DNA of 64,000 nt, from assembly GCF_001921205.1 (NCBI RefSeq), contig NZ_MSIE01000047.1, forward strand, positions 37,503 to 101,502, in the 5' to 3' direction. Under the pieces are notes generated by a model. The model was not told the origin of the DNA. It did no database searches and saw only the letters and a program-made list of their open reading frames with translations. This document shows positions 3,708 through 63,277 of this stretch, in pieces. The translations under genes were made by a program, and so were the position numbers. The stretch's first letter is position 1. Every line of letters starts with the position of its first letter. Source of the stretch: Actinophytocola xanthii (lineage in GTDB: Bacteria; Actinomycetota; Actinomycetes; Mycobacteriales; Pseudonocardiaceae).

Positions 3708-5255
3708 ATGTCTACCACCACCGGGGCGCCACCTGTGACCACCGTCGACGACGCGACCTCCGCGGAATCCGGTGTGCGGCGCACGCATCCGCTGCCGGTA
3801 CGCACGATCGCGCTCGGCACGGTCGGGAGCCTGCTGATCCTGGTCAGCGCGCTCGGTGCGGGCGCCATCCTCGCGCAGGACCCGCTGATCGGCCGGGGCG
3901 CGATGTCCTGGATCCGGTACGGCCACGGGCGCATGCTGGCGACCGTCGTGCTCTACACCGGCTTCCTGCTGGTCGTCTGGGCCTGGGTGCGCCTGGGCCG
4001 GCACGTGCTGGCCGGGCGGGTGGGCACCAGGCCGGTCCTGGTGGCGGCGGCCTGCTGGATCGTCCCGATGCTGCTCTCGCCGCCGGTGTTCAGCCGCGAC
4101 GCCTACCTCTACATCGCCTACGGAACCCTGCCGCTGCACGGGTTCGACCCGTTCACCGTCGGGCCGGGCAACCTCGACGTGGACCCGGTGGTGGACAACG
4201 TCGACTCGTTCTGGCAGAGCACGCCCGCGCCCTACGGGCCGCTGTTCATCCTGCTCGCCAAGGGAGTCATCTCGCTCACCGGCACGAACATGATCCTGGG
4301 CGTGCTGCTGATGCGGCTCGGCCTCGTGGTCGGCGTGCTGCTGCTGATGTGGGCTCTGCCGGTGCTGGTCCGTCACCTCGGCGGGCGGCTGCCGGTCGCG
4401 ATGTGGCTGGCGATCGCCGGCCCGATGACCGTGGTGCACCTGATCGGCGGCCCGCACAACGACGTCCTCATGGTCGGTTTCCTGGCCGCGGGAACGGCGC
4501 TCGTGCTCGAGCGGCGCCATGTCGCCGGCATCGCGCTGGTGACGGTCGGCGTCGCGGTGAAGGCCACCGGTGCGGTGGCGCTGCCGTTCCTGGTGTGGGT
4601 CTGGGCCGGGCACCTCCACTCGACCCGCTGGCGGAACTTCGCCCGCGCGTGCGCCTGCTCGGTCGGGATCTTCGTGGCCACGTTCGCCGTCGCCACGCTC
4701 GTCTCCGGGGTCAACCTGGGCTGGATCGCCGCGCTGGACGCGCCGACGGCCATCGTGAACTGGCTGTCGCTGCCCACCGGGGTGGGGGAGATCATCCACT
4801 CGGTGGTCGGGCTGGTCATCGACCTGGACAAGGTCTACTTCGTCAACGCGCTGCGCGTGGTCGGCGGGATCCTGATGATCGTGATCCTGGTCAAGCAGTG
4901 GTGGCGGGCCAGGGACGGCGGACCCGACGCGGTCAAGCGGGCCGCGATCGCCCTGCTGGTGGTGGCGATCCTCTCCCCGGCCACCCTGCCCTGGTACCTC
5001 ACCTGGGGCTTCATGCTCGCCGCCGCCCTGCCCTGGAAGCGCCGACAGCTCGCGGTGCAGGTGAGCCTGGCCGTGTTCCTGGTGCTGACCTACACCCCCG
5101 CCGGCGACGACCTGCTCTACAACTGGCTGTTCATCGCCTGCGCCGCGGGCGTCTCGGTGCTCGCCGGCGTCTCGCTGCTGCGCCACGACCCGCTCAACCT
5201 GTTCGCCGCCGACCGGGAACCACTTCTCGCGGTCGGGCCCGGTGTTACGCGCTGA
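3708..5255 (+). CDS. GT-C alpha-1,6-mannosyltransferase, MptB-like (copy 1)
   Basis: A 515-residue multi-pass membrane glycosyltransferase resembling MptB/MptA, which use polyprenol-phosphomannose to build the alpha-1,6-mannan backbone of lipomannan-type glycolipids outside the membrane. After an about 30-residue cytoplasmic N-terminus come repeated hydrophobic helices. The first extracytoplasmic loop carries the Asp-containing GT-C motif in SRDAYLYIAYG, followed by FWQSTPAPYGPLFILL. The donor would be made by the Ppm1-type synthase at 34655-35416. The gene overlaps its downstream paralogue by 14 nt, so the pair is co-transcribed. Family assignment is confident; the exact acceptor is not visible. 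Confidence 0.85.
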   Translation: MSTTTGAPPVTTVDDATSAESGVRRTHPLPVRTIALGTVGSLLILVSALGAGAILAQDPLIGRGAMSWIRYGHGRMLATVVLYTGFLLVVWAWVRLGRHVLAGRVGTRPVLVAAACWIVPMLLSPPVFSRDAYLYIAYGTLPLHGFDPFTVGPGNLDVDPVVDNVDSFWQSTPAPYGPLFILLAKGVISLTGTNMILGVLLMRLGLVVGVLLLMWALPVLVRHLGGRLPVAMWLAIAGPMTVVHLIGGPHNDVLMVGFLAAGTALVLERRHVAGIALVTVGVAVKATGAVALPFLVWVWAGHLHSTRWRNFARACACSVGIFVATFAVATLVSGVNLGWIAALDAPTAIVNWLSLPTGVGEIIHSVVGLVIDLDKVYFVNALRVVGGILMIVILVKQWWRARDGGPDAVKRAAIALLVVAILSPATLPWYLTWGFMLAAALPWKRRQLAVQVSLAVFLVLTYTPAGDDLLYNWLFIACAAGVSVLAGVSLLRHDPLNLFAADREPLLAVGPGVTR

Positions 5256-58837: not shown

Positions 58838-59650
58838 CTAAGTCAGCGAGATCTGGTCGCCGGTGACCCGGACGGTCCGCTCGGGCAGTGGCTTGGAGGC
58901 GGGACCGGCGGTCACCCCGCCGTCGGCCACGGCGAACTTGCTGCCGTGGCACTCGCAGTTGATCGTGCCGCCGGTGATCTTGGTGACCATGCAGCCCTGG
59001 TGGGTGCACACGGCGGAGAACGCCCGGAACTCGCCGGCGGTCGGCTGCGTGATCACGACCTCCTCGTCGGCGAAGATCTTGCCGCCGCCCACCGGGATGT
59101 CGCCGGTCGAGGCCAGCCCCGGCGGCGGTGCCTCGGTGGTCTCCTCCTGCGCCGGCGCTTCGGTTGTCTCGGCGGGCGGGGCCTCGCCGAGGACGATCTG
59201 TCCGTCGGGGGTGACGCTGACCTGCTGCTCCCCCAACGGCTCCGGGGCCGGACCAGCCGTCACGGCGCCGTCGGCGACGGCGAACTTGCTGCCGTGGCAG
59301 TCGCAGTTGATCGTGCCGTCGGCGACCGCGTTGACCAGGCAGCCCTGGTGGGTGCAGACCGCGGAGAAGCCCTTGAACTCGCCCTCGACGGGCTGGACCA
59401 CGACGATCTCCTGGTCCTTGAAGACCTTCCCGCCGCCGACCGGGATGTCCGCCGCGGCCCCGAGGACCTCGCCGGAGGGGGCCTGCGCCGACCCGGTCCC
59501 GGTTTCGCCGCCACCGCCGCCGTCACCCGCGTCGGGTGGCGGCGGGGCGGTCGGGCCGCCGTAGCGGGCGCACCCCGCGGCCAGGCCGCAGACCGCGACG
59601 GTGCCGGCCACCGCGCTGCGCCGGGGCAGCACCGGAGTGTTCTCGTTCAT
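58838..59650 (-). CDS. Lipoprotein with two tandem Rieske [2Fe-2S] domains
   Basis: A 270-residue exported protein. A Tat-like signal with lipobox (RRSAVAGTVAVCGLAAGC, Cys27) predicts a membrane-anchored lipoprotein. Two complete Rieske domains follow. The first has C99/H101 and C116/H119 as ligands (CTHQGC and CDCHGS; C104-C118 disulphide); the second has C215/H217 and C232/H235 (CTHQGC and CECHGS). They are joined by a Pro/Thr/Glu-rich linker (about 157-180) and are similar in sequence, so probably an internal duplication. It would carry two high-potential electron centres outside the membrane. Actinobacterial single-Rieske lipoproteins are common; two in one chain is unusual. Confidence 0.92.
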   Translation of the reverse strand: MNENTPVLPRRSAVAGTVAVCGLAAGCARYGGPTAPPPPDAGDGGGGGETGTGSAQAPSGEVLGAAADIPVGGGKVFKDQEIVVVQPVEGEFKGFSAVCTHQGCLVNAVADGTINCDCHGSKFAVADGAVTAGPAPEPLGEQQVSVTPDGQIVLGEAPPAETTEAPAQEETTEAPPPGLASTGDIPVGGGKIFADEEVVITQPTAGEFRAFSAVCTHQGCMVTKITGGTINCECHGSKFAVADGGVTAGPASKPLPERTVRVTGDQISLT

Positions 59651-59662
59651 CGATCCCTGCTC

Positions 59663-60373
59663 TCAGAAAGTCACGCCGAACTTGGTGAAGAACCAGACCG
59701 ACGAGGTCAGCCACAGTCCGGTCAGCGCGGTGAACACGGCGCCGCCGACGACCGGGAGCACCCAGCCGGGCTTCTCGTCCTTCGTGAGCACGATCATCTT
59801 GCAGACGAAGATCCCGTAGAAGAAGCAGCCGAGCAGCGAGTGCAGCAGCACCCGGGTGTCGAAACCCTGGAACCCGAGCGCGTACAGGCAGTGCGCGGCG
59901 ACCGGCAGCGAGACCAGCACCGCGATCCGGCCCGACCAGCGGTGCAGCACGCCCACGCCCCGTCCGTCGCCGCGCACGCCGGGCAGCCTGCCCCACATGG
60001 CGAGCGCGGAGAGCAGCTGCACGACGGCGAGCAGGAACGCGATCGAGCCCAGCCAGGCCTTCGCGTGCAGGCCGCTGGAGAACCCGGCCAGGCTGAACGC
60101 CAGGTCGGCCGGGTCGTGCAGCTTGCCGTAGACCCCGATCGCCACCGCGACCAGCGAACCGACCGCCAACGCGAAGATGACCGCGCGGAAGTTCCCGCGC
60201 TCGGGTGGGTCCCGTTCGATGTCCAGGGCCCCCCACTCGCCGGTGCTCCAGGTCGGCGGCGGGCTGACCGGAGGTCTGGCCCAGTGCTGCGGGACCGGCT
60301 GGGTCGCGTCCGCGTCCGGGATCGGCCCGGCCGGGCCGAACTCCGGTGGTGGTCCTGACGGCGTGCTCATCAC
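59663..60373 (-). CDS. DUF6529-type five-helix membrane protein, possible b-haem carrier
   Basis: A 236-residue protein with a Pro-rich cytoplasmic tail (about 1-60) and five membrane helices (about 63-85, 108-130, 148-170, 178-200, 206-230). It has His at 86, 103, 144, 161 and 178, located near helix ends (GKLHDPAD, SGLHAKAW, GVLHRWSGR, PVAAHCLYALG, RVLLHSLLG). This pattern resembles cytochrome b561/ferric-reductase-like folds that bind haem b with paired His; haem is inferred, not shown. It is 12 bp upstream of the double-Rieske gene in the operon, so it is a likely membrane electron partner. Confidence 0.8.
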   Translation of the reverse strand: MMSTPSGPPPEFGPAGPIPDADATQPVPQHWARPPVSPPPTWSTGEWGALDIERDPPERGNFRAVIFALAVGSLVAVAIGVYGKLHDPADLAFSLAGFSSGLHAKAWLGSIAFLLAVVQLLSALAMWGRLPGVRGDGRGVGVLHRWSGRIAVLVSLPVAAHCLYALGFQGFDTRVLLHSLLGCFFYGIFVCKMIVLTKDEKPGWVLPVVGGAVFTALTGLWLTSSVWFFTKFGVTF

Positions 60374-60402
60374 ACGTCTCCTGTCTCCCGCTCGTGTCGC
60401 TC

Positions 60403-61155
60403 TCAGAACGTGGTGTCCCCGGCGACCTTGTCCGCCTCGATCCGCTGGCCGTCCAGCGTGACAGCACCTTTGGCCGGGTCCAGCCGCGGCGCGGGCTCCG
60501 ACCCGCCACGGCTCTTCGCGATCCCGACCTGGCTGCCGTCCGGCAGGATGATCCAGCCGATGGTGGCCTCGGCGCCCTCGCCGCGGTACACGCCGGCCGG
60601 GGCCGTGGCGACCGGCGCGGTGAACGGGAGCTCCCGGCCCCCCACCGTGACCTTTCCGGTGAGGTTCCTGCCCTGAAGCGAGCCGACCACCCGGTTCTTG
60701 CCGTCCTTGGACTTCAGGTCCAGGCGGCCGTCGACCGCGCTGCCCTGCAGCCAGGACTCCACGGTCGCGCCGTCGCAGAGGTAGGCCGCGGCCTCCTCGC
60801 CCTTGACCGCGACGGCGATCGTCATCGGCCCCTTGTCGACCTCGCCCGCGTACACGGCCTCGGCCGGGAACGGGGGCGCGGCCGGAGGTTCCTCCTCGAC
60901 GGGTCCGTCGGTGTCCTCGGGGGACTCCGTCGGCTGCGACTCGGTCGTGTCCGAGGCGGGCGGTTCCGACGTCGGTGGTTCGGTGGTCTCGGGGTCGGTC
61001 GTCTCGATCTCACCCGAGCTGGCGACCTCGCTGGCGGGCGGGACGTCGGTGTTGTCACCGGCCACGACCAGCCCGCCGACCGAGTTGATCGTCATGAACC
61101 CGACCAGACCAGCGACGACGACCGCCGCGGTGACCAGCGGCCCTCGAACTGACAT
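60403..61155 (-). CDS. Membrane-anchored acidic/Thr-rich extracytoplasmic protein
   Basis: A 250-residue protein with one N-terminal helix (MSVRGPLVTAAVVVAGLVGF), a disordered acidic TTEPPTSEPP-type linker (about 38-95) and a globular beta-rich domain (about 100-250: YAGEVDKGPMTIAVAVKGEE, later VTVGGRELPFTAPVATAPAG). It has one Cys in AAAYLCDGATV. It is first of three genes co-transcribed with the DUF6529 and double-Rieske genes (29-bp and 12-bp gaps). ATG 61155 has GGAGAGG 4 nt upstream. It may be a structural or substrate-binding partner of the Rieske module; function unknown. Confidence 0.8.
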   Translation of the reverse strand: MSVRGPLVTAAVVVAGLVGFMTINSVGGLVVAGDNTDVPPASEVASSGEIETTDPETTEPPTSEPPASDTTESQPTESPEDTDGPVEEEPPAAPPFPAEAVYAGEVDKGPMTIAVAVKGEEAAAYLCDGATVESWLQGSAVDGRLDLKSKDGKNRVVGSLQGRNLTGKVTVGGRELPFTAPVATAPAGVYRGEGAEATIGWIILPDGSQVGIAKSRGGSEPAPRLDPAKGAVTLDGQRIEADKVAGDTTF

Positions 61156-61389
61156 GACACCTCTCCTGTCCGTGTCCCCGCATGTGCGACCAGATAGATG
61201 AGCCGATCTCCTGCTCGGCAGATACACGGGTGGGGAACGAGATCGGTTCAACCACATTTCCGAGCGATCCGGCCCGACCCGAGGTCCGACACGCCGGTAC
61301 AAATCAAGCACTGCCGCGAGATCGGGTGCAAGAATCAAGTAGATAGCCGTTGTCCAGGGCAGTCGTGCAGGGCATTCAGGGAGGCGTCG
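61156..61389. promoter_or_regulatory. 234-bp divergent gap: Rieske operon versus gene 61390
   Basis: No gene is seen. GAAC-N7-GTTC (in gaacgagatcggttc, 61237-61251) is an imperfect palindrome. TAGATA (61340-61345) could be a -10 for the plus-strand gene, and GGGAGGCG before GTG 61390 is its ribosome-binding site. The upstream edge has GGAGAGGTGTC before the 61155 start. Confidence 0.35.
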
Positions 61390-62076
61390 GTGGCGGAGAA
61401 CAGCTCGGTCCACCTCGAGCGCCTCACCGAGCTCATCCGGCCCGTTCCGCTCGCCGGCTTCGCGAGCTCGCTGTGCCGGTGGCTGCAGGACGCGCACGAG
61501 GCCGCGGCCGAGGTGCAGCTCCAGCGGCGCGGCAACCACCGGGGCGGGTGGAGCAACAACACGAGCTTCGGCACCGACCGCTACCAGTACCTGCTCGGCA
61601 CGGCCGGCTCGCTGGACAACGAGCTCCCCGGGCTGGTCGTGGACTCCGCGTTCCAGTCGGTGCTGCTGAAGTTCGAGCGGTTCGGCGTCTACCAGATGCA
61701 GTTCCCCACCGGCCCACACGGCTCGATCGGCGACGCCAGCGACCTGCGCCGGGATCTGCTGACGACCAACGGCGACCCCGGGCTGCTCAGCCGCCGCGAC
61801 ATCTGGCTCGCCGACCGGCAGCTGCTGTTCCTGGGCTGGGCCGGCAACGAGGAGGCCGGTCTCACCGGCGCCTGGGTCGGACAGGGTGAGCTCTACGACA
61901 ACAGGCTCGACTGGGACTGGCTGGTCAACCTGCTCGAGGTGGCCGAGAGCGGCCGCTTCGGCCCGGTGGCGGTGCCCGAGCCGGCCCGGCCACTGGACCC
62001 GACGATCTTCGACGTTCCCGAGCCCGTGCTGCCGCTGCGGCCGCGGCGGGAACGACCATCCGGGTCAGCGGACTGA
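61390..62076 (+). CDS. Unrecognised protein paired with XRE-ImmA/IrrE gene
   Basis: A 228-residue soluble protein. Its N-terminus is helical (VAENSSVHLERLTELIRPVPLAGFASSLCRWL). A middle region contains RGGWSNNTSFGTDRYQYLLGTAGSLDN and SAFQSVLLKFERFGVYQMQFPTG, and the C-terminus has GWAGNEEAGLTGAWVGQGELYDNRLDWDWLVNLLEVAE. I know no named family. GTG 61390 has GGGAGG 5 nt upstream. The start of the next gene is 85 bp from its stop. The pairing, in which an ImmA/IrrE-type gene follows an uncharacterised partner, is consistent with a regulator-peptidase module. Confidence 0.7.
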   Translation: MAENSSVHLERLTELIRPVPLAGFASSLCRWLQDAHEAAAEVQLQRRGNHRGGWSNNTSFGTDRYQYLLGTAGSLDNELPGLVVDSAFQSVLLKFERFGVYQMQFPTGPHGSIGDASDLRRDLLTTNGDPGLLSRRDIWLADRQLLFLGWAGNEEAGLTGAWVGQGELYDNRLDWDWLVNLLEVAESGRFGPVAVPEPARPLDPTIFDVPEPVLPLRPRRERPSGSAD

Positions 62077-62107
62077 CCCCCGCACCCGCCGGGTGCCACT
62101 CTCCGTA

Positions 62108-62153
62108 CTGGACCACCATGGAGTGTCCAGCCGTTCCGCCGTACCTGTAGGGA
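62108..62153 (+). promoter_or_regulatory. Palindrome plus leaderless promoter of the XRE-ImmA/IrrE gene
   Basis: CTGGAC (62108-62113) and GTCCAG (62125-62130) are inverted arms with an 11-bp spacer. They overlap the expected -35 region of a -10 at TAGGGA (62148-62153), which ends 8 nt before GTG 62162. This fits autoregulation by the XRE domain and a leaderless mRNA. Confidence 0.55.
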
Positions 62154-62161
62154 GCCTGTTC

Positions 62162-63277
62162 GTGAGCACGGATGCCTTCGCCGTCGCGCGGGCATTCGAC
62201 CCTGCCCGGCTGACCATGGCCCGCGAGCTGGCGGGCCTGCGCAAGCGCGAGCTCGCCGACCGGATCGACCGCACCGCGGCGGCGGTGTCGCAGTACGAGC
62301 TCGGCCAGTCGCGGCCGAGCGCGGAGACCCTGGGCCGGTGTGCGCGCGCCCTGGACCTGCCGGTCGGGTTCTTCACCTCGGGGCGTCCGCACCTGCGGCT
62401 GGACACCGCGCATGCCCACTTCCGGTCACTGCGCGCGACGACGGCGGTCCAGCGTCAGCAGGCACTCGCGCACGTGGAGCTGCTCTGGGAGGTCACCGAC
62501 CAGCTCGAGCGGGTGATCGAGCTGCCCGCGGTCGACGTCGGTCTGCCGCTGGGCATGCCGCACGGCGACCCGGCCGCCGCGGCCCGCACGACCCGCAAGG
62601 CCTGGCACCAGCCGACCGGCCCGGTGGTGCACCTGGTGCGCAACCTCGAGGCACGCGGGATCGTCGTCACCAGGATCCCCGCGGTGGACGCCGAGACCAT
62701 CGACGCGTTCTCCGCCGCGCCGCACGGCCGTCCGGTCATCGCCCTGTCCGGCAAGGGAAACCCGATGCGCCAGCGGTTCTCGGTCGCTCACGAGCTCGGC
62801 CACCTGCTGCTGCACCCCGACCCCGCGCCGGGCTCCGGCCACCACGAGCGCGAGGCCAACGCGTTCGCCGCCGAGCTGCTGATGCCGGCCGCCGAGATCG
62901 GGGACCGGCTGCCGGCGCGGGCGGAGGTGCCCGCGCTCAAGGAGGTCGCCGACGGCTACGGCGTGTCGGTCGCCGCGCTCGTGTACCGCGGCAAGGACCT
63001 GGGCGTGTACAACGACACGGCGGTCCGGCGAATGATGGCCACCCTCGGCCGGCTGGGCTGGACCACCCGCGAGCCCGTCCGCGCGGACTACCGGGGTGAG
63101 GAGCCCGAGCTGCTGGTACGCGCCGTCGAACTCGCCGCGGCGCACGGCCTGCCGCTCCCCCGCCTCGCCGCGACCCTGCACATCGGTCTGCCGAGGCTGC
63201 GCGGCCTGCTCGGAATGCACGACAGCCGCCCGCGCCTGCGACTGATCCACGGCAGCGGCGGCGGGCTCGACGAGTAG
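62162..63277 (+). CDS. XRE-family regulator with ImmA/IrrE metallopeptidase domain
   Basis: A 371-residue protein. An XRE helix-turn-helix lies at about 16-68 (RLTMARELAGLRKRELADRIDRTAAAVSQYELGQSRPSAETL). The middle region is followed by an ImmA/IrrE-type zinc peptidase domain with HEXXH at 210-214 (SVAHELGHLLLH) and the downstream Glu in HHEREANAFAAELLMP. A C-terminal helical domain ends the protein. This family cleaves repressors to switch on stress or phage/ICE genes, or acts as an antitoxin-like regulator. Here it is a likely chromosomal stress switch. It starts at GTG 62162, 8 nt from the -10. Confidence 0.9.
   Translation: MSTDAFAVARAFDPARLTMARELAGLRKRELADRIDRTAAAVSQYELGQSRPSAETLGRCARALDLPVGFFTSGRPHLRLDTAHAHFRSLRATTAVQRQQALAHVELLWEVTDQLERVIELPAVDVGLPLGMPHGDPAAAARTTRKAWHQPTGPVVHLVRNLEARGIVVTRIPAVDAETIDAFSAAPHGRPVIALSGKGNPMRQRFSVAHELGHLLLHPDPAPGSGHHEREANAFAAELLMPAAEIGDRLPARAEVPALKEVADGYGVSVAALVYRGKDLGVYNDTAVRRMMATLGRLGWTTREPVRADYRGEEPELLVRAVELAAAHGLPLPRLAATLHIGLPRLRGLLGMHDSRPRLRLIHGSGGGLDE

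What the first reader, a model, noticed from the sequence alone, without database searches (positions are those of the whole stretch)
58838..61155. Three-gene extracytoplasmic redox module: double-Rieske lipoprotein, His-rich five-helix membrane protein, anchored partner
One lipoprotein holds two complete Rieske clusters from an internal duplication. It is co-transcribed with a membrane protein having His at helix ends (possible haem b) and with a secreted beta-rich protein. This could be a small cytochrome-b/Rieske-like electron path, distinct from the bc1 complex. I know no characterised system with this set.
Basis: partly seen in the sequence, partly recalled or inferred. Interest (0 to 1): 0.8.

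Follow-up and report, generated by a model that had tools for sequence, protein, structure and literature searches.

The report
Membrane hub with tandem Rieske lipoprotein
Three neighbouring genes, found side by side in dozens of actinobacterial genomes, encode a predicted lipoprotein with two complete Rieske iron-sulphur motifs, a predicted five-helix membrane protein of unknown function and a predicted anchored barrel protein, which likely work together to pass electrons between the cell membrane and the outside of the cell.

Summary
In detail: three minus-strand genes, 29 and 12 bp apart, encode an anchored beta-barrel protein, a DUF6529 membrane protein and a predicted lipoprotein with two complete Rieske motifs. 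The set is conserved: 26 of 29 other same-family loci examined hold all three genes. Cellulomonas and Nakamurella keep DUF6529 plus a single Rieske. (1) DUF6529 looks like a redox hub with exchangeable carriers: besides Rieske, the neighbour can be a cupredoxin or a cytochrome c, and one DUF6529 is fused to cytochrome c. (2) All six genus genomes with a match have tandem Rieske domains; a domain tree favours at least two separate duplications, and an Aldersonia protein has three. (3) Conserved His lie mainly on the predicted outer face; the cytochrome c fusion keeps these and loses the inner ones. Haem b is unproved: similarity to b561, DUF2306 and ferric-reductase families is weak and the ligand set odd. 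The barrel protein (one Cys, mostly no His) is unlikely to carry electrons. The genome has a separate bc1 Rieske subunit. Likely role: a small non-bc1 electron-transfer module; direction and acceptor unknown.

The parts
58838..59650 (-). Predicted lipoprotein (RR near the N-terminus, LAAGC lipobox-like) with two Rieske [2Fe-2S] domains; motifs start at residues 99 and 215
   Evidence: PF00355, two stretches; motifs and 66% D1-D2 identity
59663..60373 (-). DUF6529 membrane protein, five predicted helices; conserved H86, K105, Q119, H144, H161, C162, H178, C183, K192
   Evidence: PF20139 1.5e-73; model; conservation
60403..61155 (-). N-terminally anchored protein: predicted eight-stranded barrel (residues about 92-184) plus C-terminal beta part; one invariant Cys (C127), no His in the window protein
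   Evidence: Sequence, model, fold comparison, alignment
60374..60402 (-). 29-bp gap between barrel gene and DUF6529 gene
59651..59662 (-). 12-bp gap between DUF6529 gene and Rieske gene

Best explanation
This is a co-conserved three-gene unit that likely forms a small electron-transfer complex on the outer face of the cytoplasmic membrane, in which the DUF6529 protein would be the membrane hub, probably holding haem b, and would trade electrons with a predicted lipoprotein that carries two complete Rieske motifs. Shown: gene order, spacing, conservation of the set, both complete cluster motifs, and exchange of the neighbouring gene between Rieske, cupredoxin and cytochrome c. Predicted: five helices with the N-terminus inside and the C-terminus outside, which puts H86, K105, H161 and H178 on the outer side where the lipoprotein would sit, and H144 and K192 on the inner side. 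Inferred: electrons enter from the quinol pool through DUF6529, pass to the first Rieske cluster and through the second to a not yet identified acceptor outside the membrane; carriers of the plastocyanin and cytochrome c kinds as alternative partners favour this direction. The tandem Rieske protein would act as a short wire or a two-electron store. The anchored barrel, which lacks cofactor ligands apart from one Cys, would be a docking, assembly or ligand-binding subunit.
For: All three genes within 1.5-kb flanks in 26 of 29 same-family loci (L054-L082; no Rieske found in L057, L058, L064; barrel gene in 29 of 29; L081 and L082 look identical). Rieske beside DUF6529 in 20 of 20 named loci, barrel gene in 5 of 20. 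All six strong (E<1e-30) barrel-gene matches in 396 phylum genomes lie beside DUF6529. Of 30 DUF6529 loci in the phylum sample, 10 have a Rieske, 5 a cupredoxin and 2 a cytochrome c beside or fused to DUF6529; the fusion is L184 5200-6015. Over 77 DUF6529 loci (L004-L082 without L030 and L031, which were not matched), K105, Q119, C162 and H178 are in 77, H144 and K192 in 76, H86 in 63 and H161 in 60. The one locus without H144 and K192 is the cytochrome c fusion, which keeps H86, K105, H161, C162, H178 and C183. Its C-terminal cytochrome c domain must lie outside (general knowledge), in line with the predicted topology. K+R per loop, mean of 54 long rows: 1.1 N-terminal, 1.9 TM2-3, 3.1 TM4-5 (K192 included) against 0.1 TM1-2, 1.1 TM3-4, 0.2 C-terminal. 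Weak profile links to haem-type membrane families: Ferric_reduct in 21 of 63 rows (best 0.0013), DUF4079 6, DUF2306 2, Cytochrom_B561 1; hhalign probability DUF2306 25% and Ferric_reduct 7.5% against 0.7% and 1.1% for two control families.
Confidence: 0.5

Rival explanations
1. DUF6529 is a membrane metal reductase or metal-site protein: electrons are passed to or from Fe or Cu at the cell surface, with Rieske, cupredoxin or cytochrome c as helpers.
For: The commonest weak Pfam cross-hit is Ferric_reduct (21 of 63); a VIT1/CCC1-like gene (named by eye from its translation) follows DUF6529 at L013; a related single Rieske protein sits with a multicopper oxidase and a ZIP-like transporter on pREL1.
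Against: No flavin/NADPH domain was seen fused to DUF6529; metal genes were not seen as a constant neighbour of the trio in the loci listed.
Confidence: 0.2
2. DUF6529 is a membrane oxidase or oxygenase and the Rieske lipoprotein is its electron donor.
For: The better of two haem-type profiles in hhalign is DUF2306 (25%), a family with one fungal member required for an epoxidation (PMC12895699, passages read); Rieske proteins commonly feed oxygenases (general knowledge).
Against: The DUF2306 link is weak; partners also include cytochrome c and cupredoxins; no substrate-tailoring genes were seen as constant neighbours.
Confidence: 0.1
3. DUF6529 binds no cofactor and only anchors or assembles the carrier; the Rieske lipoprotein is a general extracytoplasmic carrier serving bcc-aa3 or another enzyme.
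For: Rieske relatives live without DUF6529; no bis-His site is common to all DUF6529; QcrA and COX3 genes exist elsewhere in the genome.
Against: K105, Q119, C162 and H178 in 77 of 77 loci are more than an anchor needs; the carrier type changes while DUF6529 stays.
Confidence: 0.2

Closest known systems
Rieske subunit of bc1/b6f complexes (PetC/QcrA)
   Same: Two Cys and two His ligands, both disulfide cysteines and the HGS motif, in both domains; RR near the N-terminus
   Different: Two domains in one predicted lipoprotein; Phe instead of Tyr after CHGSK; the neighbour is DUF6529, not cytochrome b; below the NCBIfam cut-offs of every family listed
Cytochrome b561 / DUF2306 / Ferric_reduct membrane families
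   Same: Predicted helical bundle; HRxxG motif; weak profile similarity, with Q119 and HRxxGR aligned to DUF2306
   Different: An invariant Lys (K105) stands where the DUF2306 consensus has His; no His in the last helix; haem not demonstrated
Anammox Rieske/cytochrome b complexes (PMC12954380, abstract and passages read)
   Same: Non-standard Rieske membrane complex; one of its two Rieske proteins described also has Phe in place of the tuning Tyr
   Different: Those are parts of cytochrome b complexes; tandem Rieske domains were not mentioned in the passages read
Neisserial NHBA/fHbp/TbpB barrels
   Different: 20% identity; a shared barrel shows no shared function; here anchored by an N-terminal helix in an actinobacterium

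Membership tests
Rieske [2Fe-2S] domain (PF00355) | CxH...CxxH cluster ligands, in each of two domains | tested here: met
bc1/b6f-type Rieske protein | Two additional cysteines for the disulfide | tested here: met
   CTHQGC and CxCH in both domains; roles recalled
bc1/b6f-type Rieske protein | Gene next to cytochrome b; NCBIfam cut-off reached | tested here: not met
   Neighbour is DUF6529; bc1_QcrA_actin 64.4 bits against a cut-off of 275; the full-scoring QcrA is elsewhere
DUF6529 (PF20139) | Score over Pfam gathering cut-off | tested here: met
   246.5 bits against 23.3
Cytochrome b561-type two-haem family | Four-helix core | tested here: inconclusive
Cytochrome b561-type two-haem family | Two bis-His haem sites across the membrane | tested here: inconclusive
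   Outer H86/H161/H178 in the long form, one inner H144, no His in helix 5 of the window protein; coordinates not available to measure
Cytochrome b561-type two-haem family | Bound haem b | not testable with these tools
   Needs a spectrum
Cytochrome bc1/b6f complex | Cytochrome b subunit | tested here: not met
   The Pfam families for the window protein at E<=10 are DUF6529 and DUF6264 only
Predicted lipoprotein | Lipobox with Cys; RR signal | tested here: met
   RR in 93 of 99 and lipobox-like in 93 of 99 strict two-motif homologues; lipidation untested
NHBA/fHbp/TbpB-like barrel | Sequence homology | tested here: inconclusive
   Structural match only; no sequence hit in PDB at E<=1

The most novel reading that the evidence does not exclude
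DUF6529 is a new, minimal class of membrane b-type cytochrome, a plug-in hub with a conserved Lys-His (K105/H178) outer site, which oxidises quinol and hands electrons to an exchangeable carrier: Rieske, plastocyanin-like or cytochrome c. Repeated multiplication of the Rieske domain (two, then three in a row) builds a Rieske wire, a single-chain string of clusters that conducts or stores electrons outside the membrane.
Probability: 0.25. Interest if true: 0.85.

Novelty: new variant of a known kind. Interest (0 to 1): 0.6.

Why it matters
Known membrane proteins that hand electrons to carriers outside the membrane are mostly parts of large complexes (general knowledge). A single small membrane protein that keeps its place while its carrier is swapped between iron-sulphur, copper and haem c proteins would be a compact test bed for how such exchange works, and would give a function to an unstudied family with 3,055 relatives. 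Multi-Rieske chains make it testable whether several clusters in one chain act as a wire or a store.

Tried and rejected
Membership in bc1/b6f: rejected (no cytochrome b, separate QcrA). The third protein as an electron carrier: unlikely (one Cys in 38 of 38 rows, no His in 32 of 38). Sequence search of PDB for DUF6529 and for the barrel protein: nothing useful. Foldseek of both models: no match below 0.001. Search for a fourth conserved gene around the trio in L034-L040: none seen by eye; flanks differ between closer and more distant relatives while the trio stays. Plasmid search for the tandem protein: 91 records, all under 60% identity; the five rows listed span 285-408 bases, i.e. one domain. 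Order search with the triple-Rieske protein: the ten loci other than the window's own, out of 328 genomes, each show one motif; the Aldersonia neighbourhood itself was not reached. Promoter/terminator scan: nothing informative. Papers: DUF6529 is in none of the library (one search showed only ten of 3,449 listings); 'tandem Rieske', 'double Rieske' and 'Rieske lipoprotein' in none, 'two Rieske domains' only in PMC9812224, a cryo-EM paper on complex III, seen as a listing. The genome-contig scan used words of the query, so its 20 loci are biased to close relatives. Of 49 DUF6529 matches in the family sample only 30 were given a locus; the rest were not examined.

Full report
What is there. The three minus-strand genes exist as described. 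The first encodes a 250-aa protein with an N-terminal hydrophobic stretch, a Pro/Thr-rich linker and an all-beta part. The second encodes a 236-aa DUF6529 protein (PF20139, 1.5e-73). The third encodes a 270-aa predicted lipoprotein with two Rieske domains. Gaps are 29 and 12 bp, so one transcript is likely but untested. The two Rieske domains share 62 of 94 aligned residues, and each has the full ligand set and both disulfide cysteines. Both have Ser but Phe at the Tyr tuning position; in yeast, loss of that Tyr lowered the potential by 65 mV, yet an anammox protein with Phe still reached +335 mV (PMC12954380, passages read), so no potential can be read off.

Conservation. In a sample of 396 genomes of the phylum, 28 have DUF6529; in 297 genomes of the family, 43 do, so it is an accessory trait. 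Of the 30 family loci returned (of 49 matches), one is the window's own. Among the other 29, the barrel gene was found in 29 and the Rieske gene in 26, all within the 1.5-kb flanks. In the named set, 20 of 20 loci from Actinophytocola (4), Streptomyces (1), Nakamurella (1) and Cellulomonas (14) have the Rieske gene; 5 of 20 (Actinophytocola, Streptomyces) have the barrel gene. Four of those named loci look like the same genomes as four of the unnamed ones (identical scores) and should not be counted twice. The six strong barrel matches in the phylum sample all lie beside DUF6529; eight weaker ones do not. Of these eight, five were read: the barrel domain stands as a lone lipoprotein-like gene or is not clearly placed (L169-L172, L176).

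Partner exchange. In the 30 DUF6529 loci of the phylum sample (28 genomes), I found a Rieske gene beside it in 10 (L004-L010, L024, L029, L031, the last a DUF6529 fragment), a cupredoxin in 5 (L011, L021, L022, L032, L033), cytochrome c in 2 (L014 as next gene, L018/L184 fused), and none recognised within about 1.5 kb in 13. Pfam confirmed examples: cupredoxin 3.5e-09 (L177, same gene as in L011) and 2.2e-27 (L033), cytochrome c 5.4e-16 (L180, as in L014), the fusion with DUF6529 5.3e-24 plus cytochrome c 1.7e-12, and Rieske 6.2e-08 (L189, as in L024). L021, L022 and L032 were classed by eye from translations. Near several short forms lie genes for FixC/FixX-like electron-transfer flavoprotein:quinone reductases (one pair checked by Pfam). 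A changing set of one-electron carriers next to the same membrane family is the strongest sign that DUF6529 handles electrons.

DUF6529 anatomy. The model has mean pLDDT 78.7 and pTM 0.67. In the 63 rows of A1, K105, Q119, H144, G148, C162, H178, G182, K192, P207, G210 and S224 are invariant. On 77 loci, some of which A1 left out, K105, Q119, C162 and H178 hold in 77; H144 and K192 in 76; H86 in 63 and H161 in 60, the rows without H86 being short forms. The exception for H144 and K192 is the cytochrome c fusion, where the outer H86, K105, H161 and H178 remain. Loop charges put the N-terminus inside and the C-terminus outside, and the fused cytochrome c at the C-terminus, which must be outside to be matured (general knowledge), agrees. 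So H86, K105, H161 and H178 face the outside, where a lipoprotein would sit; H144 and K192 face the inside. This favours one working site near the outer face over a two-haem transmembrane wire. Weak cross-hits to Ferric_reduct, DUF4079, DUF2306 and Cytochrom_B561 and the hhalign ranking point to haem-type families, but DUF6264 hits are as good, and fold matches do not stand out from other bundles. In the DUF2306 alignment K105 falls on the consensus His of DUF2306, the basis for the Lys-His idea; the probability there is only 25%.

Tandem Rieske. In the genus, all six genomes with a DUF6529 match (window, L066, L070, L072, L075, L076) have two motifs; outside it, 21 of 21 Rieske genes in the family sample have one. 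In the protein search, 109 of the 111 rows P0241-P0351 have two motifs with a relaxed pattern, one has three (P0345, Aldersonia sp. NBC_00410) and one has a broken first motif (P0328); the nine short rows after them were left out of that count. With the strict pattern the figures for all 120 rows are 99 with two, 20 with one, 1 with three. These rows are mostly close relatives, not independent. A tree of 91 domains (22 of the tandem proteins, 44 single, 3 from the triple) needs at least two changes for each of D1 and D2 on starred branches; P0344/P0350 pair their own two domains (99/86) apart from the main group, and the three Aldersonia domains form one group (99/88). Only 94 columns were used, 21 forks are open, one single-Rieske locus (L068) groups with D1 without strong support, and gene conversion could mimic separate duplication.

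Distinct from bc1. The genome holds a full-scoring QcrA (400.7 bits, cut-off 275) about 1 kb from COX3 on contig C121. Two other weaker Rieske matches lie elsewhere in the genome; by eye one is a lipoprotein-like single Rieske protein and the other part of an FAD oxidoreductase.

Verdict. The unit is real, conserved and probably an electron-transfer module. The haem, the direction of flow and the acceptor are open. It would work like a small quinol-to-carrier oxidoreductase; it is not filed as a member of bc1/b6f or of cytochrome b561.

Noticed in passing
L184:5200-6015 (same gene as L018:1120-1935): DUF6529 fused to a cytochrome c domain in one reading frame; it lacks H144 and K192 but keeps the outer conserved residues.
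   Followed up: yes
P0345 (Aldersonia sp. NBC_00410): 346-aa protein with three complete Rieske motifs and no visible leader; its neighbourhood was not reached.
   Followed up: partly
L213:2579-5315: Rhodococcus erythropolis plasmid pREL1: multicopper oxidase, ZIP-like transporter and a related single Rieske protein in a row, with no DUF6529 among the annotated genes of the stretch.
   Followed up: partly
L212:2631-4285: Nonomuraea gerenzanensis: two consecutive separate Rieske genes, and the search match itself (4001-4285) just downstream, probably a third.
   Followed up: no
L189 and L194: Short DUF6529 with a Rieske gene near a divergent FixC/FixX-like pair (electron-transfer flavoprotein:quinone reductase type; Pfam-checked in L189 only).
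   Followed up: partly
window 61198-63277: Divergent to the trio: an uncharacterised gene with no Pfam hit, then an open frame with a helix-turn-helix and an M78/IrrE-like peptidase domain; a similar pair is beside the trio in L035 (by eye).
   Followed up: no
L037:10363-11208: In A. oryzae a second predicted multi-helix membrane protein of ferric-reductase look lies a few genes downstream of the trio (judged by eye).
   Followed up: no
L177:7096-8097 and L178:6914-7477: PF03640 secreted-repeat lipoproteins near DUF6529 (confirmed by Pfam only in L177).
   Followed up: partly
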